Part shown: piece after piece, positions 16,227-58,007 of the stretch | Numbering within the stretch: position 1 is the first letter of the stretch | Layout of the letters: the number at the start of each line of letters is the position of its first letter | Assembly: GCF_001540865.1 (NCBI RefSeq) | Contig: NC_033638.1 | Coordinates: 10,495,401-10,559,400, forward strand | Length of the DNA stretch: 64,000 bases | From: Ananas comosus | Taxonomy: Eukaryota > Streptophyta > Magnoliopsida > Poales > Bromeliaceae | Reading direction: 5' to 3' | Position numbers and translations under genes: made by a program | Notes under the pieces: generated by a model | Databases searched by the model: none | Told to the model about the DNA's origin: nothing | What the model saw: only the letters and a program-made list of their open reading frames with translations

Positions 16227-16245
16227 TTTTTTTTTTTTTTTTTTT

Positions 16246-21950: not shown

Positions 21951-21955
<5 letters not shown>

Positions 21956-22988: not shown

Positions 22989-23058
22989 GGGTGGAAATCC
23001 AGTTTGCTATTCCCGAGCCAGCTCGTGTTCGGCTCGAAATGAGCTTGAGATCGAATCG

Positions 23059-23074: not shown

Positions 23075-23200
23075 CCTTGTTGCTCTCTCTATCAACGTAG
23101 AAGTGACCAACATAGGTATCAAGAATAAAAATCATAATAATAATAATGAATCAGTATAAGGTTTGACCACATCATTGAAAAAAGATGATAATACTACATC

Positions 23201-23362
23201 CTAAATAAAAGAGAAGTTACACTACAGCTCGTTGTTGTTGGAAAATCTCTTAAATGACTTGAAGATAGCAGTCGGAGCGTTGGATCGTACGTAATACTGA
23301 AACCCCTTCCAAGTAGTGTTCGTGGTCCCTGAAGGGCTTTTGAACTAAAACTGCGGTAAACT
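23201..23362. other. Mirror-written last exon of an unidentified gene
   Basis: Complementing the printed letters and reading left to right gives an acceptor (TATGATGTAG) at 23191-23200. A 53-aa terminal exon follows (DLFSLQCDVEQQQPF..., ending GTSRKLDFDAI) with its stop at 23360-23362. The frame is open and the composition protein-like, but I do not recognise the family. Upstream exons would lie beyond the gap at 23059-23074. Confidence 0.5.
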
Positions 23363-24300
23363 AAGATCTTATTACATAATTACTTAAAAGAGAAAGAAAA
23401 ATAATATTGTACGTATCATTTTATTGGAGATAAAAACGAAAAATTTTTTTTAAGATCTCAGTAAAAAGAATCGGAATAATATAAAAACGAATAATTTAAT
23501 TATTAAATAGATTATTAGAAACGGAATACATCCAAAGTGACTCTCTATGTATGTAACCACGTCTATATTTACTTTAGTGACTGTTTATCCTCCGAAAACC
23601 AAAAGAACAAAACCAAACTTAAACTCAAAATATGTTTATAGGTTCAGTGGAAAAAAACCATTACCCGTTTCAATGTACATGAGATAATGATAATCAGAAA
23701 TGAGACAATGACGACCCGAGATATTTGATTAACATTAATAAATCAAAACTACAAAACTAAAAACAATCATCCCTACGTTACCAATTTCCCACTAATAAAA
23801 CAAGGATATCACTTTCAAAAGTTGATATAAACAAGTTACAAGTAGTTGAATTACATAATTCAAAATAAGAACACAAATAGAACAGAAGACTTTGAATGAG
23901 TTACAAAAGTTCCAAAAATTTTTACAAAGTTACTTATTAACTATATCCTTATCAACGTATATAAAAAGAAACATGACTTTTATGATAATATCTAATCTAC
24001 TCTCATCGTCAATCCTTTCTTATTGTCTAAAAAACCCTATAATACCTCGAGTGATATAACACTAAATACTTTTAGAGTTTGAACTTTATCAATATCAAGG
24101 TGGTAAATCTAAGATAAAAGTAGATGATTGTTGAACGGGCGTTAACAACTTTTAAAATTCTAATAATCAGAGTTCGATTTATCTTTATTCTTAGGGTCGC
24201 ATATCCATTACCTACGTCTTCCAAAATGAAAGTCCTACAATTCATAGTTGTATTCGTTAACGTATAAAAATAATAGATATAAACATATGAATTGTTTATA

Positions 24301-24452
24301 ATTTTTCTGGCTGGCAGAGATCGCGTTCACCGTTTCCCGAACTCCTAACTATAGGCTCCAGGGGTCAAGCTTAGGATCAACTAAATATAAAGATTGATTC
24401 AATAAAGATTTACTTCATTTGCTTCGCCTATTCCACGATGGATAGAGAGTTT
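24301..24452. mobile_element. Mirror-written SINE (Au-like)
   Basis: Read right to left the letters give GAGAGATAGGTAGCAC, TTTAGAAATAACTTAG, GGATTCGAACTGGGGACC, TCGGATATCAATC and CCCTTTGCCACTTGCGC. These are the same blocks in the same order as the normal minus-strand SINE at 48288-48424. It includes the box-B complement (GGATTCGAAC) and, unlike the other copies, a well-kept box-A side. Confidence 0.85.
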
Positions 24453-24875
24453 TTTTTTTTTTTTTTTAAATAACTTTTTAGTTTTACGTTAAAACAAGAA
24501 AGAAAGTTATATAAAATAATAATTACTTTCATTTATACGGTAACAATAGTTGTTTAATTCGTCCATCTCTCTAAAGAATACTTCTTCTTTTAATCAAGTT
24601 AATTCCTTAAAACTCTCGTCTACAAAAAGACTTATAAGTAGTTAGGTTAATTGGATCCTTTTTAATTAAAAGAAGTGAAAATGTTTGACAGTTTTATACT
24701 TATAAATTTGAGTAATATAAAAAGTTATCGTTTATGTCATATTGATATATTATATGTTGAATAAGATTTCTGTTTACCTGTTTAATATATATATATATAT
24801 ATATATATTATTTTTTTATATAAGTGGCCCAAGTAGACCGTAAATCGTGTTTTCTACTGAAAAAAAAAAAAAAAG

Positions 24876-25056
24876 TAAAGGGCGCATCTCAACCCTCAAC
24901 CCTTGAACCCTAGCGGAGATCCCTCGGAGCTCTACCTGCGGACGAGGAGTCGGTGCGCCGCACGTAGGCCTCGTAGGGGTTTTTTTCAAAAAACCTGTAC
25001 GACAGGTATTTTAAAAACAGGGAGAAACTGAACCGATACCTCATTGTTAACCTTCT
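24876..25056. repeat. Inverted repeat partner of 47057-47236, left copy
   Basis: About 180 bp that is the reverse complement of 47057-47236 (AACCCTAGCGGAGATCCC here, GGGATCTCCGCTAGGG there), including an ACCTGTACGACAGGT hairpin and a poly-A/poly-T edge. Because the two match as true reverse complements, both have the same writing polarity. A related direct copy of the inner sequence starts near 43110. Confidence 0.75.
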
Positions 25057-27409
25057 TCGTGAAAAATACTTTTTTTTTTTTTTTTACGAGGGAGAAGAAA
25101 AATCCAAAAATACAAAATTTAAAAGAAAAAAAATTTTTTTTGATAAACTAACGCACATTAATATTAATGTGATATTAATATTAATATATATTTAAGTTTA
25201 AGTCATAAACTAAACTATGAAAACCTAGGTTGATGACCTCAACCTTAACAGAATCTTCAGGGTTGACGTTGTCAACCTTGACATACTTCTCTGGGTTGAC
25301 GTCATTAATCTTAATATGAGTTTAGTTGGTGTCCACCCCTCTTATTAAAATTTGTTTTTTATACTCGAATGAAGGGATTATTGAAAAATTTATTTTTTTT
25401 TTTAATGTAACCTTTACTAAAATGATAGTGTATATATTTTATTTTTCTTTAAATCCTTACACGAGGAATTGACATACGTTGATTTGTTTAATAAATATCT
25501 ATATTATAAAAAATGACGTAGGTTAGTTTATTCTACATACATTAACAATAGCGATGTAAAGGTGGATGTACGTAGAAGTTGATGTAATATATTTTAAAAG
25601 AATTGGATCTTTATAACGCGAACGATTTAATCTTACATCCTAAACTAACATTATTAAGTTTTTTTAGCTCAATTTTTAATATTGTTTAATTTTAAACTTC
25701 TGATTTCACAGTGCGCGGAGTATTAAATTCCTGGTTTTCACATTAAATGGGAATCATATTGAATGAACATAACTGTAAAGTTATTTCTCAATAAACATAA
25801 TATAAGGACTATTTTAAAACGTATCGACAGGGTTGGTCAATTGTGTTGACGGTTCCTATTTACCTCATGATTTTGGGTTTTCTCAACTTTGTTGAGAGCC
25901 TACCACCACCACAGTTTATATTTAAAGTAAAACCTTATGTGTACAGCTTAAAGAGATCTTATTTCTCGTATCTAAAAAAAAAAAAAAAAAAAAAAAAAAC
26001 GTTAAAAAACATTTTAGAAAAAAAAAAAACTTTCAAGTATAACATAGGCCCTATCAACGTTTGTTTGGTTGTTATTGTCCACGAAGTGCTACAGTCAACA
26101 TCATAGGGTTCTTATTCTATTTGTAGACTTTTACAAGTCATACTCACTCGAATCGGTGTATACTTACGTTTTACGAATCCTACACAAACCAAATGCGTTA
26201 GAACGTACACCGCTAACGCACCTTGAATCTTCCGAGCTGTTAACACTCAAGTCGTACAAACCGCCTAACTCGGTATAGTTTACGTTTTACATTTATTGAC
26301 GTAGAAACACAGCTCGCTCACGTCAACATCGGACAAACAAATGACTCCTACTTTAAACCTAACTTCCTCAGCAAACCTACTTTATTTCAAGTGTATTATA
26401 GTATTTATAATGATGAGACCAAGGTCTAGATATCTTGTCTTCAAAGAGTTAAGATAACAAGTAAACCGTTTTTTATTTATTGTATTTTCGATTTTAAAAG
26501 TACCAATTATTAAATAAAAAAAAAGGAATGAGAAAAAAAAAAAAAAAACCACTAGTTAAAGTTAGACTCTACCTGGTGCTATAAAACTACTAAAATTCGA
26601 AGCTAGCTTTTATTTTGATGTCATTTGATTTTTTGCATTTATCGTAAATGCTGGCTTTTATTGTAGTAGGAGTGGCGAAAGTTATTTTGTTTATACGGGG
26701 TTCGCCACCGCAGTCACGCGAGCGTGGAGCCTAATGACTTATTGGGATTGGAAGTCCTGTTTTTCCATTGTTATTAAATAAAAAAACCTGAAGAACTAAG
26801 ATGCGTTCTTTGATAAGGTATTTTATACTACACTTTGGTTCGTGTAGAAAACCTCGATTTTTGTTACTTGTTGTATTTGTCATATAATAACTTTTCTTTT
26901 CTTTAGAATGTTACACATAGAACAGCGGCACCAATGGGGAACCTAGCATGTTTTCTCAAACATATTCTTCATGTTCATTTTTAGTCGAGACAAGTATCAT
27001 GTTGTGAAAGTTCATGTTACCACAGGTGTTTGACGTTGGTTAGTTTATTTATAAACGTTTTCTTAATATAGAAATTAGTTTTAGTTATTCAATGTTTTCG
27101 AATTACAGGAACAGCAAAGGCAGAGAGATTGTTTACAGTTCGGTTTTCGATTAATATTTTACATCCCGGTGTTTCCAAGTTGTTACTAGTCTTGGAAGAC
27201 CCATTGATTCATCATTGGAAAGAAAAGATACGTCTTGCTAGCTTCGTACAGCGAAAGAAACAAAGATCTTCATTTATTGCTTTGTATGACCTCAAGGAAT
27301 ACACGTTCGAACACCCCATAACGGGTAACTACGCCAATCGGCCTTAACTAAACACTCATCAATCAAATATTTCAACGACTCTTGAAGTCTTGTGCCTCCG
27401 TTATTTTAA
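25057..27409. other. Mirror-written intergenic DNA
   Basis: GpC-poor, AT-rich. The 25060-25330 part is a direct relative of 43150-43420. Poly-A runs occur at 25974-26000 and 26529-26548. I found no exon in mirrored reading beyond the end of the CLT gene. Confidence 0.5.
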
Positions 27410-28149
27410 AGTTAGTGAAAACTAGACGAAACGACCAACTCCTTACAACATATCATTGTTCGGATTATGGTCATAACGCCATGGTTGTTACTTTCTACAC
27501 AAATTCGAGCAGGGAACCCCGTACATTCGGTAGCCTTCTCTCTCTTACATCTACCTCCACCCGTGACTCTACTTTTTAATCTTTTTATTTATTATTAGTC
27601 GGGGCTTGTCTATATCATACTCGGATATTGTAAAAGACGAAACCATTAATCATCATGGTTCCTGAACTCGCAGCGCCGTGTTCTAGCATGGCTTTTGAAC
27701 GGCCGTGCTATGTCGTGTTACATACGACCCGGCACGGCTACGTACGACCCGGCACGGCTACGCACGGCCAGTGTTTTTTATATACACACGGCCGTGTATT
27801 ATCATACTTTATAAAAAACAAAAATCGTTGTTTTATAAGATGAACAAATAATATATAGAAATAGTTTAGAAAACTTCAAATAGCTTTTTTAATAAATGAT
27901 TAAATTTTTTATTTCCCAAAACTCAGCACACGTAGCCGTGCCTTCGATATAGAACAACCATGCTACACCGTGCCACCTACGCCGGGAGACGGTTACCCGT
28001 GGAATTAGGAACCAATCATCTGACTACAACGCAGAGACTAATAAGACAAAATAGAACGGAAAAGAAAAGAAAAAGTGGAAAAACATCGTTCTGGAATTTG
28101 TACTGGTTAATGAAAAGAAGATAAAGAAGGAAGAAAGACTGCCGTGATT

Positions 28150-28186
<37 letters not shown>

Positions 28187-31100
28187 TGGACGATTCCAAC
28201 GACGTTCTCTCCGATGATTACGTCTGCTGTAGAAGTGGTCTAATTCGTTACTATACAACTTTCGGTATAAGTAGTGTTATTTATCATCTCCGTCGTTACC
28301 TCGAGGAAGTGTTAGACTTCTTTTACCATATCGAAATTATACTATCTAGGTTACATTTTGATCTAAGTTTCTATTACTTGAGTGTAAATAATTGTTAAAA
28401 CGAGAAGGAGTTCCTGTTTTACTAAATCACTACCCCAGTCGTCATATCTTCGTATCAGGTGATTTTATCTTTCGTTAAGAGAATTAAGAGAACTTCGTCA
28501 AAATAACCTTATTATAAGAAGTTGTTCTTCTTTTTCTAGTAAGATAAATTCCCCGTTTAAGGGGGAGAGGAACGTACCATTCCCTAGCTTTGGATCGATT
28601 TTATAAACTGCGATGAAACTTCTCTATTTTCGTCTTTGTTATCCACAGTTGACAGGGTTTTTGCATATTTCCGTATTTGTTATCCACATTTTCAATAAAT
28701 TGCAGTGACTCCTGTAACCGGTACTTTCGAATTTTAAGTAGTGTTAAAGTTCTTTCTAGTTTAGGTACCTAACGTTTAGTTCTATATTTCTAGAAAAGGG
28801 GGGCGATAAAAGAATATTCTTTTCTCTTAAACCTAGGTTTCCAGTTACAATATACTTTGTCGTTTCCAAACTGTCTTCTTTCGTAATTGAATGATTAGAA
28901 AGATGTTTTACTATTCTTTACTCTAAGGTGGTGATGGATGGAATTTATGAAGTTCTATTATATTTTCTTTATAGTTAAGTTTCTGTAGTGATGTTTCTTT
29001 CTTTGAACGGAGAGTCTAACGGAGGGTGTAAGTGTTTCGTAGGTCGTGGTACAAAATGCATACGTCCCTCGAGTCACTTTCCTTAAGGAGAGTTCAATCT
29101 TTCATTTCCTTCTTCTTCTTTTTGTTTTTCTCGGACGTTCAAGTTTCTATTCTTTTGTGTGTTCTTAATACTGTGTTGTTTCCTTTACAATGGCACACGT
29201 CTTTATGGTTCGTTTGAAGTTTTATTACAAACATTATTTTTGGTTTTTATATACCGTCTTTTTAATAATAGTTTTACTAATTTTGAGTGGACTTTGGGTC
29301 TAGGTTTCCTTAATTGCTGTTTATACAGTTCGCCGAAAGGGATGTTCTTTTCATAGTTTAGTCAGTTTTTATTGTTTTATCATTTAATAAAAAAAAGGAA
29401 GAAAGCAAATTTTTTCTTAGTCCTCTGGTGTGTTGACTCTAAAGGTAATTTGTTCGATTTTTGTTATCGTTTGGACTTCTGCGAACCGTGGTAGTTATTT
29501 TTGTTTGAGGACGCTATTCATCGTATATCGAATCTCTAAAGGATTAGTTCTTAACTTTATATTAATATTATTCAATTATTGATAGTCGCCGAATTTGGAA
29601 CTCTTACCTACGTGGTCGAACTTTACGTCTGCTTTCATAGTACTCACGACCGGTTTATTTTAGTTGAAGTCTATCTTTAACTGGGAGTAAACGTGGTGAC
29701 GTCAATTTACTGTTTTTCCGTAATTCTCAGAAGACTTATAGGTAGTTATATACTTTTGTTCTCCAGAATATACTATTGTTATCCTCTGTTTCCTTTGTTT
29801 AAAGTGTGACCTTTGTGTTACGCGTTGTCTGTAAACACACTTATTCGTCAATTAACAACCAGCTGCCAAAGAGTTACGACGAAACCCGAACATGAAAGAA
29901 TCCGAGAAAACAAATGATTACGTAAGTACTTAGTCCTGCTGCTGTTGTTATATTTATTTTCCGATGGTAAAGCGAAACTCACTTTCGTAGGTTTAACCGA
30001 ATTTAGGTTTAATAAAGGTTTTTATACCTTAAGTCAAGGATCTAGTACAAACCGACATACCCACCAACTAAACCTAACGGTTAGTAGGTTTCAATGAACT
30101 ATCATGACTTCGCACTTATGCGAGTTCGTGAGATCGAATTAAGTTACCTCTCAAACGAAGTAGTCGAACAATGTAAAGCCCTTATAAGATAAGTTTTATC
30201 ACTATTACAGTAGTACGTTGATTATAACCTTCCTGTTATCCAAATAACCCTTCACTACTTTAGTAGGTTCTAAGGGTTGATTGTAATATAATGGTATCCG
30301 ACAGCCAAAACTATAATGGATTGGTCGACCCTTCGTTCCTATTATACACTATAACCTTACTCCGTCTATTTATTTTTTTACATTTATTTTTTATTTTTAT
30401 TATTACCAAGTTTCTTTAGAGGAGATAAAAAAAACGTCCGACTACTCTAAAGGATCATAGAGATGAGAGCTCGAAATTAGTAATATGTCACGAATGATTG
30501 CACCCTCCTTCTTCTTACTTCATAAACTTAAGGTCACGTTTTAAATCAGAAAATCTACTCTTATCCTGATAACCGTCTGGATTTTCTTTCCTCGTCGAAT
30601 GTCGGAATGCATTCATTTGTATATGGGTTATTAGAGTATCGTTACAGTGGTTTCATTATATCAAAACGACTAATACATCTTGTTGAAAGATACTACTGTT
30701 TCCTGTACACCTGTGGTTAATACTTAACAAACTAGTGTTGTTTGATTACCATGTTCTTTACTGTGTTTATTATTGAGCTATTCTTTTTTCTGTTATCTTG
30801 TTTCTACTATGTAATGTGACACGAACTTTTCAGGTTTGATATGGAACGATGGCGTTCTTAATGCGGTCGACAATGTTCCTTCGTTGGTTTCTAAACCAAC
30901 TCACTTATAAAGGAAGGGTTTTGATGATACCTCTTCTATTCGACGGTCTGGTTCTTTCTGACGTTGGTCTGTTCCTCTTCTTCTATTAAAATAATATGAA
31001 GCGTGTTAGGTCGTTTAGTATTAACTCCTTCAATAGTGATTATTGACGTAAGAGACTTCTATTAAGGAAAACAGGTTTTTATTAACTAATTTCAGAATTA

Positions 31101-32277
31101 CTAGGAGTAATAAAATAGGTGCTTTTGTTAATGACAAATTTTATTAGCTCGAGTTTAAATCATGGACTCTATTATACCCTTACCGTCCAGGTCCTTCGTA
31201 TCGACATTCGTGTTTGTGCTCCTTTGTGAATTCTCGTTTTGCTCGAAATTAGATGACCTCGTTAACGTTAGAGTTCAAGATCACTGGGACATTTTCGTTT
31301 ATAGAGTATCTGTTTTCCGTTGTCCTTTTAACGTAATTTAACAAACTATCAAAGTTAACCCAGCGTTAAGAACATTTCACCTGTTCACTGTAGGACTTCA
31401 AAGTATTCAGGAGTTTCATTCGGGAGAGACATAAGGAAATTGAACTTACCGACGGTTAGACCACACGATACAATCGTAACGTCGGTGAGTTGATTTCGAG
31501 CCCATCGACGGTACAATCGACTACAGTAAGTTAACTTCGACTACACCGGAGGTACATTTCAATTGCACCGACGGTGAAATCGAAGTGATAAAGAATTTTC
31601 CTCCGTTTCTTTATTGCATAGTTTAAGAGTCCACAACGAACAGTTGAAATTTTCTTGTTCCTGGTTCTCTTTTGATAGTTTTTTCAAGTCTCTGGTAATC
31701 ATGTTAAATGGCTATTGTTCGTCGTTTGTTTGTTTGTTACGCAGTAAGTATGGAGTTTTTTAGTACAAACACAATAAAAGTCTGTGTCACGTTTCTTAAT
31801 TGGAAAAGGTTACAAGAGTCTCTTTTAAGTCTCTGTCCATGTCAAATTGGTAGGTAACTACCTTCGTGATAACAATAACATATCGTACCCATACATAGGA
31901 CTCTTTAGGTTGTATTTTCCTTCGCAATACCCTAATGGAGGTCGTCTGTACGGATTTCGTTGTGGTTCCCGAAGTTCTTGTGGTTAACGGTATTTTGCTC
32001 AAAAACCTTCACGGTCGTAAAGGAATCAATGTTAAGGTTCTGCTATAGATTGCATGTCTTATCTTTTTATATGACGGTGTATAGACGTTACTTAATGCAG
32101 TGTTAACCGTGTGAAATATAACTATTTACATAATCGTACAGTTTTCTCGAGTTACCAGATAAGATATATAGTATCTCTTTGTGTACTTCGTGTTGCATAC
32201 ACGACGTTAGTTGATATGAAGATATCAACGTAGTTCGTTACATTTTTCTTTGTATGTGTGCACATGCGTGTGTGTAC

Positions 32278-32315
<38 letters not shown>

Positions 32316-33605
32316 AAAGTTTTCATAGACTCACCACTATGAAACGTTTTGACTATCATTTCGTAAACTTAACTACTAAGTAGATTTTTTAAACTTATAT
32401 GCTAGTTAGGTTAATCTATACTAGATCACATGAATTTTTAAGGTCTTTAAACTTTAATATCAAAAGGATAGAGAAGATGATTCACCAGAACTTTAATTTA
32501 TCTTTTAATTTTCAAGTGCGTTCTTCTAATAAGTTAATCTTCGATTCTTATTTAGGATAGAACATAAGATTCCGTGAACAAGTTATGTGTTGGGAAACGT
32601 AGGTGAACTACTCGTTTTTAATGAAATTTTCGGGACTAAATACAAAAATCTAATAAGTTTATCAGATCGACTAAAGCTTCGAACCTTCAGTACCTAGAAG
32701 TTAGGTTTATGAGATGTCTTTAAAACTCTTGATTCTTGTTCATTGTTAGTTTATGAGAACTCTCTTCGGGTCGGAATATATTCATTTGTAAATACAGGGT
32801 CTTTAAGCTTTACTATAATCTTTATCTTTAGTACCCAATTTTTACTTGACTAATAATGATAAAAGTCTGAAGTACCTAAAGGGATGGATAAGTAGAATTC
32901 AAGATATTCTATGTATTTAATACTACGGTACTAAGTAGTTAACAAGGTTATTCCCTTCCAAGTTGATCTTTTTCTGGATTCATATGTTTGTATTTAACGT
33001 AAGAGATCCTATGTTTGGGTCATTTTTGATGGACTTAAACATTTTTCTCCCTATAGGTCAATGGTTTATTTTAATGTCGGTTAAAAAGTGTAAAATAGTC
33101 TTTGTGGTCCACTTCGTCTATCCTTTGATTGTAGTATATATAGTGGCTAGTTACATGTAGAGTTTAAGGTGAGTATTTAGGTAGTTGGTGGTTATGGTTT
33201 TGTTCGTGGAGTTAAATGATCACTTTGAGTGGGTTTACACCACTAAACGCGCTCTTTCTTCCCTTTTACGAAGTACCCTTGCTCACGTTCGAACATCTCT
33301 TGCGCTAAGTACTGGCGATCTTCTTGGCACTGGCGCCTAGGGTGGCGCTAAGGCGGTACCTTGGGGAGCCCCTCGGGGCACGGCAGGGAGCTTCGGTATT
33401 TGCAGCGATCTTGAGCGCCGAAGCGGCTCCTACGCGGCGGCTGGGTCGAGGGAGGTGGCCTCACCGCCGCGGCTGCGCCCACGCTCCGCCTCTTCCGGTA
33501 CTCCCTCTAGGATCCCAAAGCCTGGCGCTAAGCTCGCTCCTAAACCCCTCCTCCTCCCCTCCCCCTCCCCCTCTCCCCCTCCCTACTCCTCTTCTCCTCT
33601 AGGTA
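27410..33605. other. CRT-like (CLT) plastid thiol transporter gene, mirror-written
   Basis: Read right to left without complementing, ten exons give one 421-aa frame with correct splice sites: 33605-33232, 32083-31938, 31202-31165, 30959-30844, 29697-29598, 29509-29474, 29340-29290, 29133-29010 (GC donor), 28314-28189, 27564-27410. The Ser/Pro/Arg-rich N-terminus (MDLLFSSSLPLSPSP) looks like a plastid transit peptide. The membrane core follows: NRVLYKLALVPMKHFPFFLA, YVAVYFSILYVRYR, LALPKTRFMAIGVLEALGVA, AIPILSQSFLVWQLIFS, VVNSFGSGFQALFVFLL, CEGAPLLPLLFIVMN. It ends LLLYNIPQPAKQIKSD. These match the plant CLT family, homologues of the Plasmodium chloroquine-resistance transporter that export glutathione and its precursor from plastids. 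The frame is intact, so the gene is probably functional in the real genome. In normal reading it is invisible. Confidence 0.93.
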
Positions 33606-38600: not shown

Positions 38601-39311
38601 AGTAGTATTCACAAGGCCCACGAGTGAGTTCCTTCGGAGGTAATCTTTCATAGGAGGATATTACCGAAATGAACAACATTCTTTATATTAACGTATTGGA
38701 GAGTCATAGAGGGATCTTGTAAACACCGGTACGTAGTTGATTCACGTGTTACCGACCTTTTCTAGGGAACGACATAGTCGGGTTGACACTAAACCAGGTG
38801 TATCTTGTACTCCTGGAACTTGAAATCCAAGTATAGTTACCAGGAGTATAAACGTGTTTTAATAAAGAATCTTTGAATGTGAAAAACTAGTTCGTCAGAA
38901 AACGTTTTTCGATAATTAGATCTCATTCTTATACGATCAAGTCGTTAGGTTTGTATAAACATAAAAAGTAATTTTAATCGAAACAAAAATCTCCCCTTTT
39001 AAAGTAAAGAAAGATAGATCGCGTTTGAAGAAACAGAGAAATGGGAGGTCTGGTCAAGTGAGAGAGAACAAACTTCGTCGCATATATAAGTTTTCAAAAA
39101 ATATATCAGATCGACATCATCACAAGGAACAAAGTCGGGAATTGGTAGATTTCTTAATGATAACCTTGTATATGGTCCGGGGTTCGGACGTTTTACGTAA
39201 CTTGAAAAACGATCTCTTAACTGCCGACCTACCTAGAGAACCCCTTTACTTGGTGATGCAAAAGTTCTAAGTGACATAAAAGACTTTTTCTGTTTATTGA
39301 CCACGAGGATC
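35654..39311. other. METTL4-like MT-A70 adenine methyltransferase gene, mirror-written
   Basis: Complementing the printed letters and reading left to right gives ATG at 35654 and a first exon to 35890 (METGIYRLDGSNVVFIDP..., VLNESYSRF, then KRKRKPKPHHDLNERERVAE). Exon 2 is 35972-36182 (EARALLLSAHKALLAAADLL). Later exons encode QNCCYILPRRSSFHM (near 36780-36825), the catalytic FNLIVIDPPWENGSVHQ with DPPW at 37219-37230, YPTLPNRYFFNLPVKEL and LVVLWMTNREKLRMF with TPFYWLK (about 38036-38220), QVIISVPGAHSRKPPLE (near 38600-38640), and the end LLLEHIPGPKPAKCIELFAR, WISWGNEPLRFQ with stop TAG at 39309-39311. This is the METTL4 branch of MT-A70 enzymes, which methylate the N6 of adenine in DNA or U2 snRNA; the substrate is not decided here. 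Not every splice site was fixed. Confidence 0.9.
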
Positions 39312-40110
39312 CATGCCTTAAAACGCGAGACGTCTTTAATTAAACCGGCTCTACGTCGACTTTTAATCCAGCTGAGAAAAAGTGAAAGACCTCGGATGGG
39401 ACGACATAAAAAGAAATAGAACAGGATCTAGTTAATAAACAAAAACTTCTTGAAGGTCTACTTGAACAGGTATAAAACTCACATTAAAAATCTACAGTAT
39501 GAACTTGAGGTAATCCGAATTCACTCTGGGAAATTCTACCGAACCTAGGATCCTAGGACACAGGTAACTACAGGTTACACCGAATAAACCACATTTTTCT
39601 TAGAATAATACAATGATGTAACCAGTCCTTTCCAAAACTTAGTTTTGAACATCCAGTTAAGTCACGAAAATACATATCCCGTTACATCACTAGGTACTAA
39701 TCTCAATAAGACCTTTAAACCATTACTTTTAGTAATGAGGACACCAACAAAGACAGATGAGAGAAAGGAGACACGAACCTAACCGCGGAAAAGAAGAGAG
39801 AAATCAGTGGCTTAACCCGTAAACGGGAAGAAAAAGGGCGAGGTAATACGGAATACAAGAGGCAGAAACGGAGATAAACCACCGACAACAACGATTTAAA
39901 AGGACGAAAAAGACTAGACGACGACACAACAATAAGTAGAAGACATAACGACGTCTTAAGTCTAGCTAGTGACTTGAAACAATTGACAACAGAGAACTTT
40001 TACTAAAGAAGAGAATAAGTTTTGTCAAAACTTAGTAAGGAGAAAACCCTCCACTTTATAAATATCGAGCCGTCTCAAACTGCTACTTTAAAAAATTAAA
40101 ACCCCCGAGA
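39312..40110. other. Mirror-written intergenic DNA at the end of block 1
   Basis: GpC-poor, CpG-containing text without exons in mirrored reading. The switch to normally written DNA falls near 40.08-40.12 kb, because the element starting at about 40112 pairs with a right end lying in the normal island. Confidence 0.5.
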
Positions 40111-40111
40111 C

Positions 40112-40785
40112 TCGTGTGCGATCCCTGTACAAACAAAGTGGCTTTGACTTAAAACCCAACTTCACTTGAAACCCAACTTCACTTCAAGCCATTTTTAATA
40201 AAAAAGGGACAACAAACAAAGCATCAACACCTCCACTTCAAAGTAATCAAGACGACAAACAAACTATCCTTCACATACTACATTTTAATATTAAATATAT
40301 ATTTATTATTTATTAAATTATTTATTTTTATTATATCCATAAAAAAAATATGTATTTAATATCATTATGTTGTTATTTTAATATTTCATTTTTTAATAAT
40401 TATGAATTAATTAGTTAAAGATAGTATAAATTAACATGTTTGATTTATTTCTTTTATAATTTTGAATTAATTAGTTTAAAATAGTATAAAATTTATACGG
40501 TTGACTTATTTTCTCATTAATCATGGTATTAATTTATATAAATTTACATTGATAGAAATGGATAATATAATAAAATAATAAAAAAGAAGAGGAGGGGAGT
40601 GGCATTAACTAAAGCCGGGTGCTACCCGCTTCAGTTCATGCGACAAAATCCAATTGAACCCAAAACTGGCATTGAAAAAATGCCGCTTGGTTTGTTGCCT
40701 TCACTAGCAAATACCGCTTTTGCTGAAGGGGGGGAGACGTGAAGGTGGGTTGAAGGAGGGTTTGTTTGTACGGGATCCAACAGAA
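40112..40785. mobile_element. MITE with CCC(T)GTACAAACAAA ends
   Basis: The left end CCCTGTACAAACAAAG and the right end TTTGTTTGTACGGG are inverted copies apart from one base. The interior is AT-rich and contains a partial tandem duplication (GAATTAATTAGTT.AA.ATAGTATAAA, near 40404-40420 and 40464-40490). It has no coding capacity and lies downstream of the FAR1-related gene. Confidence 0.6.
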
Positions 40786-41129
40786 AGTCATTAAAACACT
40801 AAAGAAGAAGTTAACTACCGCCAAGCACATCCTTGTTAATTTAGGTCTAATAATAACAAAATAAAATCAATATTATGAAAGACATTCCTGACTCTAAAAA
40901 AAACTGTCACGTTGATTTGAGAGACAACTACTACAAATACACACATTAAATTAATGTATTCGTGAGCAGTTCAAAGCCTGCTTTTACTCGATTTTACCTC
41001 TTCTATGCGCTAAAAATCAAAAGTGAATTCACTTATCATTGAGGCCAAAAGGCCTCTTCGGTGCCTCATCTCAATTGTTGTGGCAGAGCTATATTATCTA
41101 TCATGTGAAACAAGTAAATTTGTTAGTAA
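40786..41129 (-). other. Region downstream of the FAR1-related gene
   Basis: Probably the 3' UTR and 3' flank of the minus-strand FAR1-related gene. No other feature was seen. Confidence 0.4.
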
Positions 41130-43073
41130 TCAAATACAATAAAAATTTATTAAAAAAATGATGTATAGTATCATACTCTGTTGATCTTTACTTTTCTTAG
41201 GATTTCTTTTCTTTCTCTCCAGAATACTTCTTTTCCTCTTTTCTTTTCTCCCTTTTTGTAGTGGTGGAGGTTTAACTGTGATATGACTATGAATTGTATC
41301 AATCTCAATGGTTTGTCGGATCGATGCATCGAAAGTATCATCACTCTTTTCATTCCCTATAATTGATTCATGCAAAATTTTCTCCACGCCTAGTGTTAAT
41401 GCATTGAGTCCTTTTTCCAAATAGATGAGAGCTTCTTTACAATTGGAGCTCTTGGCTGCAACAGAAAGGGCTTTGTGGCAAACCCGCGCATAAGTTGAAG
41501 CATCATCACCTACCATAGATTGCGGCACACATAAAGCTATTCCATCTTTTGCATACTTAGTCCACCTTCTCAATATGTAGCGGTTTGGGAGGTCAACAAT
41601 ATTGTTAATATACAACACCTTTAATGCATGTGCACATAAAATTCCATAATACTCAAATCTACGGCAAGTGCATTGTACAATATGATCTTCTTTGTTCAAA
41701 ATGACAACCTCCTCATCTGTGGATGATAATATTGATACCTTTGTAGTACTAGATAATTCATCAAAAACTAATAGTTGACAAGTACTTGCAAACGCCTTTT
41801 TACAATTATCCTCAAATTCTTTATATAGCGTTCTCGTATAGACATTTGCTGCAGTAATCAACAAGGGCACATCGGGCAAAAAGGGAACTGACTTAGTTTG
41901 TCTTGATTTATAGTCTTCGTATAATTCTTTCTCACGAAAATGCTTCAAGGCTCGATCATATTCTTTCAAAAGCTCACTAAGAGATAGTTTTTTGTGAAAG
42001 AATTGCTTCAAATGGCTATTCATACTCTCGCTTCTTTGTGTCGTCCTCATGTTAGCACAAAAGGAATCACGACGGAACACCTCAGCCCATTTCTCACGAA
42101 GGCAATATAGGTTTTGCAACCATGCGTTTTCTTCAAGATTATAGGTTCTCAACATGTCTTCCCACCTCGCCACAAAATTTTCAATTGAACGAGCTTCATA
42201 GGCACAATCTTTAAGTACTTTTGAGAACTCTGGAAACTTTGAGATAATGTGGCCGAGATTCGTGTTGGCATTTTGGAATATATGCCAAAGACATAAACGA
42301 TGACACGTATTAGGAAGAGCTGATGAGATTGCTTTAGCCATGGCCGCCGATTGATCTGTGAAAATAGTAATGGGTTCTTTTCCACACATACAAGATAGAA
42401 ATGTTTGAAAAAGCCAAATAAAGGACTCAGTTGTTTCATCACACAAAAGTGCCGCTCCGAAAATAACCGTTTGCTTGTGATTGTTCACTCCAAGAAGGGG
42501 TGCGAGCGACATATCATATTTATTAGTTTGAAATGTGGTGTCAAAAGAAATGACATCACCGAAATATGCATAATCAACAATCGACCGTCCATCTGCCCAA
42601 AAGAAGTTAGCTATTTGTCCTGATTCATGAACTTGGATAGAATAGAAAAAAGAAGGATCCTCCTTACGCTTCATTTGCAAATATTCTAACAAAGTTTGAG
42701 TATCCTGGCCATGTAAGTATTTAGCTCGTTGTCCACTAATATAGTTATTACAATCCATACGAAGGAATCCAACATTCTCAATTCCTTTGGTCCCTTCTTC
42801 AAAGAAATTGAAAACATGAGCTGGTTTAATACCGGCCTTACCCATTTGATTCATAAATTGTTTTTGTGCTGGTAAAATTTTCCTTTGTGACCGTAACATA
42901 TGAACTTTATTTGGACTAGTACACTTATGACTATGATCCAATATAACTCTTTTTATAGTCCAAACATTACTACGATCAATTTTGAATTCAATGCGGGCTT
43001 GGCAATCAACTCTCTCAATTCTTCGTGGCCTTTTTGCTTCATAAGTAGGGTGGTCTTCTCGTTTTCCTTGCCT
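41130..43073 (-). CDS. FAR1-related sequence (FRS) protein, 3' part
   Basis: A long minus-strand exon encoding the rest of a FAR1 domain (RQGKRED...CQARIEF...VWTIKRVILDHSHKC) and the MULE transposase-like domain (YAYFGDVISFDTTFQTNKYD, ESFIWLFQTFL, ITIFTDQSAAMAKAI, HRLCLWHIFQNA). The SWIM zinc finger follows (C-x-C-R-R-F-E-x-x-G-I-L-C-x-H, about 41605-41670 in coordinates). The frame stays open above the first candidate start at 42941, so no start codon belongs here. The missing 5' exons are mirror-written at 47394-47941. FAR1/FHY3/FRS proteins are transcription factors domesticated from Mutator-like transposases, acting in light signalling and development. Joining both parts gives 777 codons, a normal size. 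The extreme C-terminus could be altered by an unseen 3' intron. It may be a host FRS gene or an autonomous element gene. Confidence 0.88.
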   Translation of the reverse strand, partial: RQGKREDHPTYEAKRPRRIERVDCQARIEFKIDRSNVWTIKRVILDHSHKCTSPNKVHMLRSQRKILPAQKQFMNQMGKAGIKPAHVFNFFEEGTKGIENVGFLRMDCNNYISGQRAKYLHGQDTQTLLEYLQMKRKEDPSFFYSIQVHESGQIANFFWADGRSIVDYAYFGDVISFDTTFQTNKYDMSLAPLLGVNNHKQTVIFGAALLCDETTESFIWLFQTFLSCMCGKEPITIFTDQSAAMAKAISSALPNTCHRLCLWHIFQNANTNLGHIISKFPEFSKVLKDCAYEARSIENFVARWEDMLRTYNLEENAWLQNLYCLREKWAEVFRRDSFCANMRTTQRSESMNSHLKQFFHKKLSLSELLKEYDRALKHFREKELYEDYKSRQTKSVPFLPDVPLLITAANVYTRTLYKEFEDNCKKAFASTCQLLVFDELSSTTKVSILSSTDEEVVILNKEDHIVQCTCRRFEYYGILCAHALKVLYINNIVDLPNRYILRRWTKYAKDGIALCVPQSMVGDDASTYARVCHKALSVAAKSSNCKEALIYLEKGLNALTLGVEKILHESIIGNEKSDDTFDASIRQTIEIDTIHSHITVKPPPLQKGRKEKRKRSILERKKRNPKKSKDQQSMILYIIFLINFYCI

Positions 43074-43109
43074 AAAAAAAAAAACTTCACACCCGCTTTA
43101 AAAACTCTT

Positions 43110-43500
43110 CACGATTCACCGTTCAGAGAGGTTAATAACAATAACGCCGGACACTTCGTTGTTAACCTACTTCGTGAAAAAATCTCCTTAAAAAAAGGAG
43201 GGGGAAGGAAAAAATCCAAAAATAAAAGATTTTAAGAGTAAAAGAATTTTTGACAAACTCCACACATTAATATTAACGTGATATTGACATTGATATATGT
43301 TTAATTTAAATTATAAACCAAACTATAAAAACTTAGAGTGATGACTTTAATCTTTAAATAAACTTTGATGTGGTTATAATCTTCGTCAAGATAGATGTTG
43401 TTCACCTTTCTCGTTCAAATTTGGTTTATTTTCAAATAGTGGGTTGTTCACTTTTCTCGTTCAAATTTGGTTTATTTACAAATAGTGGGATTATTGAAAA
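43110..43500. repeat. Repeat related to 25020-25330 and 47027-47047
   Basis: Shares CAGAGAGGTTAATAACAAT with 47027-47047, and TTGTTAACCTACTTCGTGAA with TTGTTAACCTTCTTCGTGAA at about 25043, then ATTAATATTAA and ATAAACCAAACTAT-type words. It also has an internal duplication (GTTCACCTTTCTCGTTCAAA and GTTCACTTTTCTCGTTCAAA, about 43396 and 43446). Confidence 0.65.
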
Positions 43501-43509
43501 ATTTATTAT

Positions 43510-43726
43510 CTCATCTCGATGATATGATAGCCTTCATATTTCACTAACTAGTAAAGATTAGTAACCTAATTATAATAATTGGTTACTCCTGGTGAGTTGG
43601 TATACTCCTGATCGATTGGGATTCCCCTGGCGATAGTAGAGTTGGCATCTTAAAAACTAGTTTCTTGATTTTTTAGTCTTCGTGGTTGATAAAATACGAA
43701 GGCTATCGTATCATCGAGATGTGATT

Positions 43727-43780
<54 letters not shown>

Positions 43781-44275
43781 TCCCGATCTTATGAAAATGT
43801 TCATAGTGGGTTCACTATGAACACACAAAAATCGGTAACCTAGATGAAAAACTAATGATTATCAGGAACCTAGTTTGTGATAAGGTGGATGGTGGTGGAT
43901 GGTGGTGGATGGTGGTAGTAGAGTTGGAGTGTAGAAAGGTAGGTTCCCGATTTTTATGTGTTCATAGTGAACCCACTATGAAAATGTTCATAAGATCGAG
44001 ATGATATATATATATATATCTTAATCCGACCTTATGATAATTATCATTTTGCGAGAAAAACGATAGTTCAAAAATTGGGAACCTACTTTTTAACATCCCA
44101 ATCCTACTATAAACAGTCAATTTCAAGTTACCAGGGGGATCCCAACTGACCAAGGGTGACCCAATATCATAAATTAAGTTACCAATCTTTACTATTTTTC
44201 TCAACTAGGTTTCTGATTTTTTGATCATCGTTGTTATCTTAAAACGATAATTATCATCGGGTCAGGTTAAGATAT
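43510..44275. mobile_element. Cluster of three nested MITEs and a long (AT)n tract
   Basis: First, 43520-43725 with inverted ends ATCTCGATGATATGATAGCC and GGCTATCGTATCATCGAGAT. Second, after (AT)n at about 43728-43780, 43782-44003 with ends CATCCCGATCTTATGAAAAT and TCATAAGATCGAGATG and a GGTGGATGGT tandem. Third, 44020-44275 with ends CTTAATCCGACCTTATGATA and ATCATCGGGTCAGGTTAAG. All are mirror-written. Confidence 0.65.
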
Positions 44276-44288
44276 ATATATATATATA

Positions 44289-44344
<56 letters not shown>

Positions 44345-44347
<3 letters not shown>

Positions 44348-44895
44348 ACGACCATACAAATACCTTCGTGCCTCCGGAGGCACGAAGGGTCAGCAAAAGC
44401 TACAAGCCTGAAAGCTTAGCTGCTAGCCGAGGCAATCTCAACTAGATCTCATAAACTTCATAGATCTTTTATTTAAAACGCTAAAAAGCTATAGTAAACG
44501 GATCACTAGCTTCCCCGAGTTTTAGTTATTAAAATTGCCGGCACCACTCGGCCAACGTTCAAATTGCCATATCTTTATAGGTTTAGTGTACTTTAGTACT
44601 ATCTTTTAAGAAATGTGGTATATTTTGTTCTAGTTATTGAAACTAGATTTTAAAATTAAAGTATAGTAGTATAAAACATTCTAAAAATAAAAGTCGGCAA
44701 CTAAAACTCGGTGAAGCTAGTGATCCGTTTACTATAGCTCTTTAGCGTTTTAAATAAAAGATCTATGAAGTTTATGAGATCTAGTTCAGATTGCCTCGTC
44801 TAGCAGCTAAGCTTTCAGGCTTGTAGCTTTTGTTTCACGTTCGTGCCTCGAGAGGCACGAAGGTATTCGTAGGATCGGCGTGAGATATATATATA
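44345..44895. mobile_element. Foldback MITE, mirror-written relative of 21951-22495
   Basis: The ends include inverted GCCTCCGGAGGCACGAAGG and CGTGCCTCGAGAGGCACGAA blocks, and an AAGCTTAGCTGCTAG / CTAGCAGCTAAGCTT pair further in. A (TC)n microsatellite precedes it (44291-44344). A diverged third copy lies at 45160-45715, and part of another near 33890-33940. Confidence 0.75.
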
Positions 44896-45160
44896 TATAC
44901 TCAACCTGACCTGATGATAATCATCGTTTTAAAATAACAATGATGGTCAAAAAATCGGAAACCTAGTTGAGAAAAGTAATAAAGATTGGTAACCTAATTT
45001 ATGATATTGGGTCATCCCTGATGAGTTGGGATCCCCCTGGTGAGTTGAGATTTGCTAATTATAGTAGGTCTGGGATGTTAAAAAGTAGGTTCCCAATTTT
45101 TGAACTATCGTTTTTCTCACAAAATGATAATTATCATAAGGTCGGATTAAGATATACATA
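44896..45160. mobile_element. MITE, inverted copy of 44020-44275
   Basis: Starts CTCAACCTGACCTGATGATA and ends ATAAGGTCGGATTAAG. The interior (GGGATCCCCCTGGTGA, AAAAAGTAGGTTCCCAATTT) is the reverse complement of the copy at 44020-44275. The two flank the 44345-44895 element. Confidence 0.7.
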
Positions 45161-45770
45161 TCAGACCGACCATATAATAGCCATCGTGCTTTTGGAAGCA
45201 CGACGCTTCAATAAAAGCTACTACGCCGAAGGTTTAGTTGCTAGCCGATACAATCTAAACTAGATATGATAATTTTCGTAAATCTTTAGTTTAAAATATT
45301 AAAAAACTGTAGTAAATAGATAATTTACTAATCAGATTTTTATTTACTGACTTTTACTTTTAGAATATTTTTTTACTACTATTACTATTATCTGAACTTA
45401 AATTTTAGTTTCAATGACTAGAATGAGATTCATTATTTTTTTTTAATATTTTTAAAGCAGTTCAAACCTAATAAAATATGGCAATTTAAATGTTTGCGTA
45501 GTGTAGTCGGTAGTTTTAACAGTAAATTCTTTAGAAAACTAATGGTCGGTTTATTACAACTTTTTAATACTTCAAATCAAAAGTTTATAAAAGTTATTAC
45601 ATATAGTTCAGATTGCCTCGGCTAGCAACTAAACTTTCTGCGTAGTAGCGTTTGTTCAACCATCTTCCCTTCGGAAGTACGATGGCTATCATATGGTTGA
45701 ATCAAGATATATATATCTCAGGCCGACCTTATAATAGCTATCGTGGTTCTCAAACCACGATAGCTCAAAA
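45160..45770. mobile_element. Diverged foldback MITE, mirror-written
   Basis: The inverted ends CAGACCGACCATATAATAGC and the ATGGCTATCATATGGTTGAA region enclose an interior that parallels 44345-44895. A further short palindrome (ATCGTGGTTCTCAAACCACGAT, centred near 45752) follows. Confidence 0.6.
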
Positions 45771-46010
45771 AATGGCAATTTAAATTAGTAAACTAATAAA
45801 AATAGGCAATCTAATATGATAAGTTGGTTGATGAGTAAGTTGTGATTTCCTGGGTATAGTAGGATTGGCGTGTAAAGAGTTTGCTCACTTCGAAAATTTT
45901 TGAAACGGGTTGTGTATTTTTAGAGGAGACCGTAGGCGATTAATTCCTACTGCAGTGTTAGAACGCATTCTAGCTCCCTAGTGACCTACGTGGGCCGAAT
46001 GGCACGTGGC

Positions 46011-46216
46011 GTACGGACTTTTAACTCTAAATTTGGTAATTTATATAAAAGTCCGTTAATTTTCGATATATTGCAAACGTGGTGTACGGACTTTTAACTC
46101 TAAATTTGGTAATTTATATAAAAGTCCGTTAATTTTCGATATATTGCAAACGTGGTGTACGGACTTTTAACTCTAAATTTGGTAATTTATATAAAAGTCC
46201 GTTAATTTTCGATATA
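46011..46216. repeat. Tandem repeat, 73-bp unit, about 2.8 copies
   Basis: GTACGGACTTTTAACTCTAA recurs at 46011, 46084 and 46157. Each unit contains its own inverted pair (ACGGACTTTTA and TAAAAGTCCGT) and ends with TTTTCGATATA. The copies are almost identical, so the array is young or recently homogenised. It lies in mirror-written DNA. Confidence 0.85.
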
Positions 46217-47056
46217 AACTTTAGTATTTAAAACTTATACATAAAGAACACTTAAAAAAAAATTATGTCGTTAAAAATCTTGATAAACTGCATTCATATT
46301 CTTTTAGGATAATTTTTTGAAATCTCTTTTAATTTTATAAAATATTAACAAATATTCATCACCACGAATTCGTTAAATCATGCATGTTCTTATTAAAAAA
46401 ACAGATTTTCTTAAGATTATTTCTAGTGATGTTGTCCAATGCAGTTTCTATAAAATTTTTTTACGGCTACAATGTTGTATAATTCTTCGACATACCAAGG
46501 TTGATAGTTTTTATCAAAAGTCAGTTTTTTATTATAAAATCATCTTCTTTTTTCAAAATGCGAAATTGTAGACTTAACAGTCTTCTCTTCTTAATTAAAT
46601 ATTTGTTATAAACCTATTTTCACGGATTAAACTGTCTCTACTAGATATTATAGATCTTATGGATGTACGTTTTTTTACAAGTTTTTTTAGTCATAGGCTC
46701 AAATATTAATAGAAAATATATATTTAGAATATTCACAGTGCCTTGTGTGCTTTAATTAACTTTTCTCTTTTCTTTAATTAAAACTTCGAAGATAAAATCA
46801 AAAAAAATGGGAATCTCCACACCACATTCCGTATGAGTATGTGGGCCACGTAAGTTAAAAAAAAAAAAAAAAAAAACTCTGCCTCCCACACCTTAATGAA
46901 CGAAAGGAGATGAATACACTTACCTGCCGATTCTAGCTGAGGCGTTAGGTAACTGGTTCAGTATCTGTGCACCCAGTTTCTAAGGCACTGCACCGTGAAA
47001 TATGGGACATCATTTTTTCACAGCCGCTCAGAGAGGTTAATAACAATTAATTAACG
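46217..47056. other. Mirror-written intergenic DNA
   Basis: AT-rich with a poly-A run at about 46859-46878. A GC-moderate stretch (46880-47056) leads into the inverted repeat. No exon is supported in mirrored reading. Confidence 0.45.
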
Positions 47057-47236
47057 GTTACATCCCCCGAGAAACTGCCTGTTTTTAAAATACCTGTCGT
47101 ACAGGTTTTTTTAAAAAAACCCCTACGAGGCCTACGTGCGGCGCACCGACTCCTCGTCCGCAGGTAGAGCTCCGAGGGATCTCCGCTAGGGTTCAAGGGT
47201 TGAGGGTTGAGATGCGCCCTTTACTTTTTTTTTTTT
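47057..47236. repeat. Inverted repeat partner of 24876-25056, right copy
   Basis: Reverse complement of 24876-25056, ending in a poly-T run. It lies directly in front of the mirror-written first exon of the FAR1-related gene. The pair could be the long ends of a Mutator-type element, but no target duplication was confirmed. Confidence 0.7.
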
Positions 47237-47393
47237 TTTTTTTTTTTCGGTGGTTTGGAGACCAAAAGATCTCTCTCTCTCTCTCGCTCTCTCTTTCTTT
47301 GTCTCTTCTTTTTCGGTACCACTCTTCTTCGACAACTACTTGGTACCACTCTTCTTCGACAACTACTTCTTCGACAACTACTTCTAATTCTTT

Positions 47394-47941
47394 TACCTGT
47401 TGTGGAACCTGTTTTTGGGATTAGTTACATTCTTGAAAATAATGATAATGATAATAAAATTAATATAACTGAAATTTTTTACAAACGATCTATACCTTTT
47501 CGTTAGTTCAGATATACTTAAGTGGTTGGTTCTTAAACTCAGAAGAAGATGTTTAAACCATTTTCGTTATAGTACACCTCTTCTTAACCATGTAAGATTA
47601 TTACTTAGGAAGGGTAAGTTATACGGTTTATAATCGAGGAACGGACAATGTAGTCGGCTTCGTCACCATTTATAGATTTAAGTTTCCGAATTAAACAGTG
47701 AATATACACTAAAAAAAAGAAAAAATACATTAAAATAACTAATTACAACTAATGAAATCTGAATAGACGGTTGACCTATAAGACACCTTCTACTTGGGTT
47801 TCAACCATACTGAAAATATAGACTTCTTCTTCGAATATTAAAAATGTTACGTATACGTTCTTTTTAACCGAAGTCATAGTCTTTTTCGGTGTGATGATCT
47901 TCTTTTCTATTATGACATGTTTGATTCACCTAGCATACATC
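47394..47941. other. FAR1-related gene, first exons, mirror-written
   Basis: Complemented left to right, exons 47394-47427 (MDNTLDKNPNQ), 47491-47666 (MEKQSSLYEFTNQEFESS...) and 47760-47941 form one frame with GT-AG introns. The third exon starts the FAR1 zinc-binding domain (KVGMTFISEEEAYNFYNAYA, RKIGFSIRKS, VQTKWIVC). It stops in mid-codon at 47941. That codon is completed by the minus-strand base at 43071, giving C-R-Q-G-K-R and continuing to the stop at 41130. Upstream in-frame ATGs (near 47366-47370) could extend the start by a few codons. A GGTACCACTCTTCTTCGACA-type tandem repeat precedes the start (47316-47385). Confidence 0.88.
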
Positions 47942-47942
47942 N
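47942..47942. other. Single N at the right edge of the mirrored block
   Basis: Marks the exact switch from mirror-written text back to normal sequence, in the middle of a FAR1-domain codon. Confidence 0.99.
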
Positions 47943-48305
47943 CGGGGTTAAAGAGCTTGGAATATATGTGCGGAGATAACTATGCCCCGAATTGGGAATA
48001 ACTTTATCCTCATTCCTTTTTATTGTTATAGTTTTCATGCCTATTCCGAGTTTCCCCACCATGCAGTAATTATTTTTTTTTTTTTAGAGAAAAGTAACAC
48101 GTCATAATTGCTATACCGTGAAGCACACTTTTGAATTAAAAAAAAAAACTATATTTACACCATACATAAAGAGTGTATATCTTATATTTTTTAAATCCAA
48201 AAAATTATAAAATTCTAAATAAAAATTAGCATTAACAAATTTAGTATAATAAATAAAATAATACATACTATAATTTTTTTTTTTTTGAGAGATAGGTAGC
48301 ACACT
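47943..48305 (+). repeat. Direct repeat flanking the filled gap, right copy
   Basis: Nearly identical to 22617-22988, with differences mainly in homopolymer lengths and a few substitutions. Its right end runs into the SINE at 48288-48424. Confidence 0.85.

Positions 48306-58003: not shown

Positions 58004-58007
<4 letters not shown>

What the first reader, a model, noticed from the sequence alone, without database searches (positions are those of the whole stretch)
23075..47941. About 22 kb of the window is written backwards: reversed without complementing
Standard reading of both strands gives no gene here, yet plain reversed text (or plain complement) gives complete plant genes with correct splice sites. 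CpG/GpC balance is inverted relative to the flanks. DNA strands are antiparallel, so no inversion, transposition or rearrangement can produce this; it must be a data-handling error in gap filling or scaffolding. Any annotation, repeat masking or synteny of this interval is void until corrected.
Basis: partly seen in the sequence, partly recalled or inferred. Interest (0 to 1): 0.97.

Follow-up and report, generated by a model that had tools for sequence, protein, structure and literature searches.

The report
Pineapple contig pasted in backwards
In what is very likely the published pineapple reference genome, a 25,000-letter piece of text is written mostly backwards without swapping the paired letters, so its genes cannot be read there, and backwards text turns up at many other places in that assembly, probably from a gap-filling or contig-merging step.

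Summary
The window lies in a 382-Mb assembly that is very likely pineapple F153 (contig C18). The 24,867 bp of 23075-47941 sit between 16 Ns and one N. The first 18,000 bp (23075-41074) and last 4,867 bp (43075-47941) are reversed without complementing; exactly 2,000 bp between them are normal. Complemented, 25558-41074 equals a correctly oriented stretch of C15 of the same assembly (no substitution, one 17-bp gap at an N) and carries CLT and METTL4. Each block was reversed in place: undoing that rejoins a split FAR1 reading frame, restores a 4,811-bp Mutator-like element with 163-bp inverted ends and a 9-bp target duplication, and gives the order of C15, which holds the empty site. A public pineapple FAR1 protein ends in two residues that match the reversed text, so the public record appears to carry the error. 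It is not unique: reversed probes of two repeat families gave 47 and 42 matches; two further 10-20-kb stretches read as reversed; four of seven contexts examined hold mirror repeats (92-100%), three beside Ns. The tool responsible is inferred. No biology is needed.

The parts
1..23058 (+). left neighbour contig, normal text (one N at 16226)
   Evidence: Markov LLR and CpG/GpC
22615..22985 (+). near-duplicate of 47943-48302 (93%); no other strong copy of this stretch among the 40 scored of 744 first-look candidates in the genome
23059..23074 (.). 16 Ns, left edge of the inserted contig
23075..41074 (.). block A, 18,000 bp, reversed without complementing; complement 25022-25511 and 25558-41074 = C15:4267793-4268282 and 4268764-4284297
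24860..25021 (.). right terminal inverted repeat of the Mutator-like FAR1 element (reversed text), followed by the 9-bp TSD CTCTTTGAC
27446..33305 (.). CLT (CRT-like transporter) exons, readable only in the complement
   Evidence: tblastn with an approximate recalled plant CLT query: seven hits in the complement (E 3e-17 to 0.008), best hit in the printed text E 0.17; exon 1 gives a CRT-like Pfam match below the curated cut-off
35633..39287 (.). METTL4 (methyltransferase-like protein 2), 9 introns (GT-AG imposed by the aligner), readable only in the complement
41075..43074 (-). block B, exactly 2,000 bp, normal text; body of the FAR1/MULE transposase, printed minus strand
43075..47941 (.). block C, 4,867 bp, reversed without complementing; complement 43075-47077 = C15:4264194-4267801 (99.3-100% in three pieces, with length differences at repeats), then the left part of the FAR1 element
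47078..47239 (.). left terminal inverted repeat of the FAR1 element (reversed text), preceded by the TSD CTCTTTGAC
47760..47941 (.). FAR1 N-terminal exon in reversed text; the seam to block B is 47941|43074
47942..47942 (.). single N, right edge of the inserted contig
47943..64000 (+). right neighbour contig, normal text

Best explanation
Window 23075-47941 is a 24,867-bp stretch between two runs of N whose first 18,000 and last 4,867 letters are written backwards without complementing, most likely put there by a gap-filling or contig-merging step that mishandled minus-strand pieces. SHOWN: block sizes 18,000 / 2,000 / 4,867; identity of the complement of 25558-41074 with C15; true order complement(C) - reverse complement(B) - complement(A). 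SHOWN: reversed text of the same kind elsewhere in the assembly, some of it overlapping a neighbouring contig as a near-exact mirror image. INFERRED: the contig was carried as two overlapping pieces of 20,000 and 6,867 bp (2,000 overlap); stretches covered by one piece were complemented but not reversed, while the doubly covered 2,000 bp came out right. INFERRED: the contig is a second copy of the C15 region misplaced in C18 between two contigs whose ends resemble each other. INFERRED: the faulty step belonged to the original assembly.
For: Composition, Markov and repeat tests. Genes only in the complement. C15: 25558-41074 aligned with 0 mismatches and one 17-bp gap at an N; the only METTL4 matches in the six-frame search of the assembly are 8 of 8 on C15. 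Collinear chain with C15: 18,795 bp if reversed in place, 16,024 if complemented in place, 0 as printed. FAR1 Pfam model: positions 1-35 at the end of reversed C, 37-88 at the edge of normal B; joined 67.3 bits, 75.0 with the serine that the exact seam gives; C1689 has the same junction uninterrupted for 25 bp beyond it, then diverges. TSD CTCTTTGAC on both sides of a 4,811-bp element with 163-bp TIRs; one CTCTTTGAC in the 40 kb fetched of C15, at the empty site. Elsewhere: 47 and 42 reversed-probe matches; C20:85001-105000 reads as reversed, its complement encoding a sugar transporter (PF00083, E 1e-83) whose correctly oriented copy is C8:12272467-12273585, 99%; mirror repeats beside N1 or N25 at two places on C7 and one on C4.
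Against: For the artefact itself: none found. For the mechanism: the 18,000/2,000 pattern is seen once; the C20 stretch shows no normal 2-kb block in 20 kb (best 2-kb LLR +3.2, against +40.8 for block B), which a fixed 18-kb step would require. The window holds no mirror repeat of 100 bp or more, unlike the C7 and C4 places, so large and small inserts may come from different steps. For the small inserts composition is weak or contrary: C7:12426397-12432000 reads as normal (+63) although a reversed probe matches inside it; the C4, C1 and C6 contexts read as normal overall, and C6 has no mirror repeat. Only 13 of 24 loci fetched by reversed probes have negative LLR. Block C differs from C15 by a few substitutions, small indels and longer length differences at repeats. 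The seam rc(B)|complement(A) has no second copy in the genome and rests on the TIR/TSD and C15 order. The assembly's method paper was not held.
Confidence: 0.87

Rival explanations
1. The blocks were complemented in place, order kept (for instance a letter swap applied without reversal, or a reversal whose swap skipped lower-case letters).
For: Genes inside each block read equally well after complementing.
Against: No FAR1-like N-terminal sequence precedes the seam in any of three frames (older boundary 43071|43072); the C15 order is complement C before complement A; TIRs and TSD would not bracket one element.
Confidence: 0.04
2. The text was altered downstream, when the window or the held genome copy was prepared, and not in the public assembly.
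For: Raw reads and the public FASTA could not be read here; the contig length given for P0121 (10,911,977) differs from C18 (10,910,764).
Against: The public pineapple protein P0121 ends ...IALPQQLR: the final LR and stop equal rc(41066-41074), which is reversed text, and it lacks the FAR1 domain lost at 43074.
Confidence: 0.03
3. A gap filler inserted the pieces: PacBio- or contig-based fills were pasted reversed, with 25 Ns left where a fill did not close (PBJelly-like). This is one form of the best explanation.
For: C7:5927701-5930156 lies between N1 and N25 and its first 803 bp mirror the 803 bp beyond the N25 (99.4%); further mirror repeats at C7:12426259 (before N25) and C4:10201072 (N1). 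PBJelly defines gaps as 25 or more Ns (PMC3504050, passages).
Against: The window interval is bounded by 16 and 1 Ns, is longer than the C7 and C4 inserts, and has no mirror overlap; that F153 was processed with PBJelly was not found.
Confidence: 0.35
4. A genuine recent duplication of the C15 locus lies on C18 and only its text orientation is wrong.
For: The interval sits at a defined place in a 10.9-Mb contig.
Against: Zero substitutions over 15.5 kb although F153 heterozygosity is 1.89% (PMC6139296, passages); left contig end and right contig start are near-duplicates, as if adjacent.
Confidence: 0.08
5. A biological process made parallel-strand or mirror-image copies.
For: None.
Against: No polymerase or recombination known to me copies text into reversed text (own knowledge); round block sizes and adjacent Ns.
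Confidence: 0.001

Closest known systems
Ordinary assembly inversion or mis-orientation
   Same: A piece inserted in the wrong direction at contig joins
   Different: An ordinary inversion is reverse-complemented and its genes remain readable on the other strand; here METTL4 and CLT are readable on neither strand
Haplotig or duplicate contig misplaced in a scaffold
   Same: The interval duplicates most of C15:4264194-4284297 and sits between contigs whose ends resemble each other
   Different: Two of its three blocks are reversed text, and it carries a transposon that C15 lacks
Reversed (not complemented) genome used as a null, as in REPET
   Same: Identical text operation, used as a simulated genome for score thresholds (PMC4981986, passage)
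   Different: Here it stands inside the assembly that is being annotated
Mutator-like element with FAR1-type transposase
   Same: 163-bp TIRs, 9-bp TSD, FAR1, MULE and SWIM domains
   Different: Nothing unusual; it serves as the internal ruler for the order of the blocks

Membership tests
Reversed-without-complement artefact | neither printed strand carries the genes; the complement does | tested here: met
   METTL4 923 against 47 or less; CLT
Reversed-without-complement artefact | a correctly oriented copy of the same sequence exists | tested here: met
   C15 for 25022-25511, 25558-41074 and 43075-47077
Reversed-without-complement artefact | no raw reads support the printed text | not testable with these tools
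   no read data available
Ordinary inversion | genes readable on the opposite printed strand | tested here: not met
   printed minus strand score 47
Complemented in place | block order conserved against the counterpart | tested here: not met
   order is C, B, A on the complement strand
Mutator-like (MULE) element, FAR1 type | long terminal inverted repeats | tested here: met
   163 bp with at most two mismatches
Mutator-like (MULE) element, FAR1 type | 9-bp target duplication and an empty site | tested here: met
   CTCTTTGAC on both sides in the restored contig, once at C15 near 4267793
Mutator-like (MULE) element, FAR1 type | transposase domains | tested here: met
   MULE PF10551 1.3e-28, SWIM PF04434 3.3e-08; FAR1 PF03101 8.1e-21 joined
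PBJelly-type gap fill | insert bounded by a run of 25 Ns | tested here: not met
   16 and 1 Ns here; N25 present at two C7 places
PBJelly-type gap fill | the tool was used on this assembly | tested here: inconclusive
   method paper not held; the search (11 papers, 10 listed, none opened for this) gave no statement

The most novel reading that the evidence does not exclude
Reversed, uncomplemented text is a systematic component of the pineapple F153 reference: perhaps a hundred or more inserts, up to about a tenth of the copies of some repeat families, many of them second copies of loci present elsewhere in correct orientation (both cases tested were), so that gene counts, repeat content, haplotype and synteny statements based on this assembly are contaminated. 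A CpG/GpC inversion scan would detect the same fault in other draft genomes.
Probability: 0.6. Interest if true: 0.7.

Novelty: not a real feature. Interest (0 to 1): 0.5.

Why it matters
Reversed text is invisible to gene finders, repeat maskers and aligners, and looks like sequence private to the genome. A public pineapple FAR1 protein appears misbuilt because of it. One study counts 26.21 Mb of F153-specific sequence against GL1, using an F153 assembly it lists as 377 Mb (PMC8824783, passages); whether reversed text contributes is untested. The diagnostic (GpC above CpG in most normal text here, the opposite in reversed text, plus mirror repeats at gaps) is cheap and general.

Tried and rejected
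Rejected: complement-in-place and lower-case letter-swap models, and two rounds of reversal (FAR1 seam, C15 order). My first boundaries, 40110 and 43071/43073, were replaced once C15 and C1689 were seen; searches use older coordinates. My early reading of the N at 47942 as the B|C join was dropped when the seam proved exact without it. I also asked whether C15 itself is the reversed side in 40111-41074, because composition there is neutral: the shared repeat on C13 speaks for C15 being normal. A search of fetched FAR1 relatives for support of the other seam gave nothing. The 18,000/2,000 pattern was looked for on C20 and not found. Phrase searches for printed reports of this fault listed 0, 7, 1 and 14 papers; two were opened for the matching passage only (PMC8920891, PMC4981986) and use reversal as a control. 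The library lacks most subscription papers. Papers seen as passages only: PMC6139296, PMC8774480, PMC8824783, PMC3504050, PMC4981986, PMC8920891.

Limits on counts: the repeat-probe searches score only the best 40 candidates (53 and 141 reversed; 1,150 forward for the second family), so the ratio 141:1150 is crude, and several matches lie side by side. The interval's own copy of the second family is not among the 42 listed matches. Of 24 loci fetched through reversed probes, 13 have negative LLR and 3 a mirror repeat of 100 bp or more at 90% or more; of 29 others (some overlapping the interval) 2 and 0; of eight 10-kb loci 4 and 4. The two probes are not mirror-symmetric beyond 9 and 18-21 bp. 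No scrambled-probe control was run.
Full report
WHAT WAS CHECKED. Dinucleotide counts agree: CpG exceeds GpC in 14 of 17 kb of 23-40 kb and 3 of 5 kb of 43-48 kb (one tie), against 7 of 39 flank kb (block totals). A Markov model trained only on the flanks scores the two blocks at -317 and -60.5 nats for printed against reversed text and the middle at +42.9, while 52 of 52 left-out, overlapping flank segments score +30 to +117 (older coordinates). Repeats shared with the flanks match only via the complement, 14 pairs against none. METTL4 aligned as a spliced gene scores 923 in the complement and 43 to 47 in the other three readings (introns restricted to GT-AG by the aligner). CLT exons appear in the complement only (query recalled and approximate).

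WHERE IT COMES FROM. The METTL4 model is 97% identical to pineapple protein P0001; apart from 14 residues that I left out at one exon join and the last seven residues it is the same. The window is C18:10495401-10559400 of a held assembly of 381,958,007 bp in 3,128 contigs; the published F153 assembly has 381.9 Mb in 3,133 scaffolds (PMC6139296, passages). That the two are the same is inferred. In this assembly METTL4 is found, correctly oriented, at C15:4278841-4282531 (8 of 8 matches).

EXACT ANATOMY. Complement 25558-41074 equals C15:4268764-4284297 with 0 mismatches and one 17-bp gap at an N. The first reversed block is therefore 23075-41074, exactly 18,000 bp from the run of 16 Ns. The second block begins at 43075 and ends at the single N at 47942, 4,867 bp. 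Between them lie exactly 2,000 normal bp. The whole is 24,867 bp.

TRUE ORDER. The FAR1 N-terminal exon in reversed block C ends at 47941 and its continuation begins on the printed minus strand at 43074: TGTAG|TAGGCAAGG, reading WIVCSRQGKRED. The Pfam FAR1 profile is split at positions 35 and 37 and joins at 75.0 bits. Contig C1689, 87% alike up to there, has the same junction unbroken for 25 bp beyond it and then diverges. So the order on the complement strand is C, B, A: each block was reversed in place. In that order the contig has an 18,795-bp collinear chain with C15, against 16,024 bp if complemented in place and 0 as printed. It contains a 4,811-bp element with 163-bp terminal inverted repeats and CTCTTTGAC on both sides, while C15 has CTCTTTGAC once, at the corresponding site. 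Reading frame, counterpart and target duplication are separate kinds of evidence. Block C is not identical to C15: a few substitutions, small indels, and longer length differences at repeats.

CONSEQUENCE IN PUBLIC DATA. The public pineapple FAR1-like protein P0121 starts inside the gene, lacks the FAR1 domain and ends ...IALPQQLR, where the last two residues and the stop equal the minus strand of reversed text at 41066-41074. The fault is therefore very likely in the public record and not only in the copy used here. Its contig is given as 10,911,977 bp, while C18 here has 10,910,764 bp; the difference is unexplained.

PLACEMENT. The end of the left contig and the start of the right contig share 93% identity over 371 bp (360 bp on the right), and among the 40 scored of 744 first-look candidates there is no other strong copy of that stretch. 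This suggests that the two contigs are neighbours and that the interval is misplaced (inference).

HOW FAR IT SPREADS. The plain reverse of one high-copy repeat gave 47 matches at 73-93% identity, and that of a second family 42 matches, with 141 first-look candidates against 1,150 for the forward probe (only 40 scored in each, some matches side by side). Seven places were looked at in 10-kb loci (eight loci). C20:85001-105000 and C17:4843001-4853000 read as reversed throughout by the Viterbi call (single kb near zero). The C20 stretch encodes a sugar transporter in the complement whose correctly oriented copy, 99% identical, lies on C8. Four places contain mirror repeats of 92-100% identity. 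On C7 an insert between N1 and N25 begins with the mirror image of the 803 bp that follow the N25, as expected if a fill overlapping its right neighbour had been pasted in backwards; part of it also mirrors 481 bp after the next N (95.6%). The others are C7:12426259 and C4:10201072 beside Ns and C1:4811499, a mirror palindrome without N. Composition does not confirm these short inserts: the C4 and C1 contexts read as normal overall and the C7:12426397-12432000 part as normal. The seventh place, C6, reads as normal and has no mirror repeat beyond the probe match. None of 29 loci fetched for other reasons has a mirror repeat of this kind.

MECHANISM. Most likely pieces on the minus strand were complemented but not reversed by a filling or merging step. 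The 18,000/2,000/4,867 pattern fits a contig cut into 20,000-bp pieces overlapping by 2,000, with only the doubly covered part right. This is inferred from one case; the C20 stretch does not show it. The small inserts beside N25 resemble PBJelly products, whose gap definition is 25 or more Ns (PMC3504050, passages). That PBJelly was used on F153 was not established.

VERDICT. An assembly artefact, not biology; unusual in kind, and apparently spread over this assembly. Four phrase searches found no printed report of it.

Noticed in passing
window 47078-47941, 43074-41075 and 23075-25021 (in true order): A 4,811-bp FAR1-type Mutator-like element with 163-bp TIRs and a 708-aa open frame, present in this contig and missing at the C15 site (9-bp empty site): probably a recent insertion, heterozygous in F153.
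   Followed up: partly
L015 (C1 near 2016900): A 99.3% copy of the left end of that element stops at 47835, where the window copy has AAGCTT (HindIII) in the complement, and is followed by sequence shared with many plasmids that looks like cloning-vector lacZ: BAC vector apparently left in the assembly.
   Followed up: partly
C15:4268284-4268762 (L010): A fragment of the element's left end stands between two single Ns inside the otherwise empty-site copy on C15.
   Followed up: no
window 22615-22985 and 47943-48302: Near-duplicate ends of the two flanking contigs (93%), suggesting they belong together.
   Followed up: partly
L057 (C1:4811499-4812766): A 1,268-bp mirror palindrome at 92% identity without any N.
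   Followed up: partly
window 320-2546: A large imperfect inverted repeat (320-1819 against 2546-1184, 72%) with internal tandem copies.
   Followed up: no
protein P0121: Public pineapple FAR1-like protein that starts inside the gene and ends in residues matching reversed text.
   Followed up: yes
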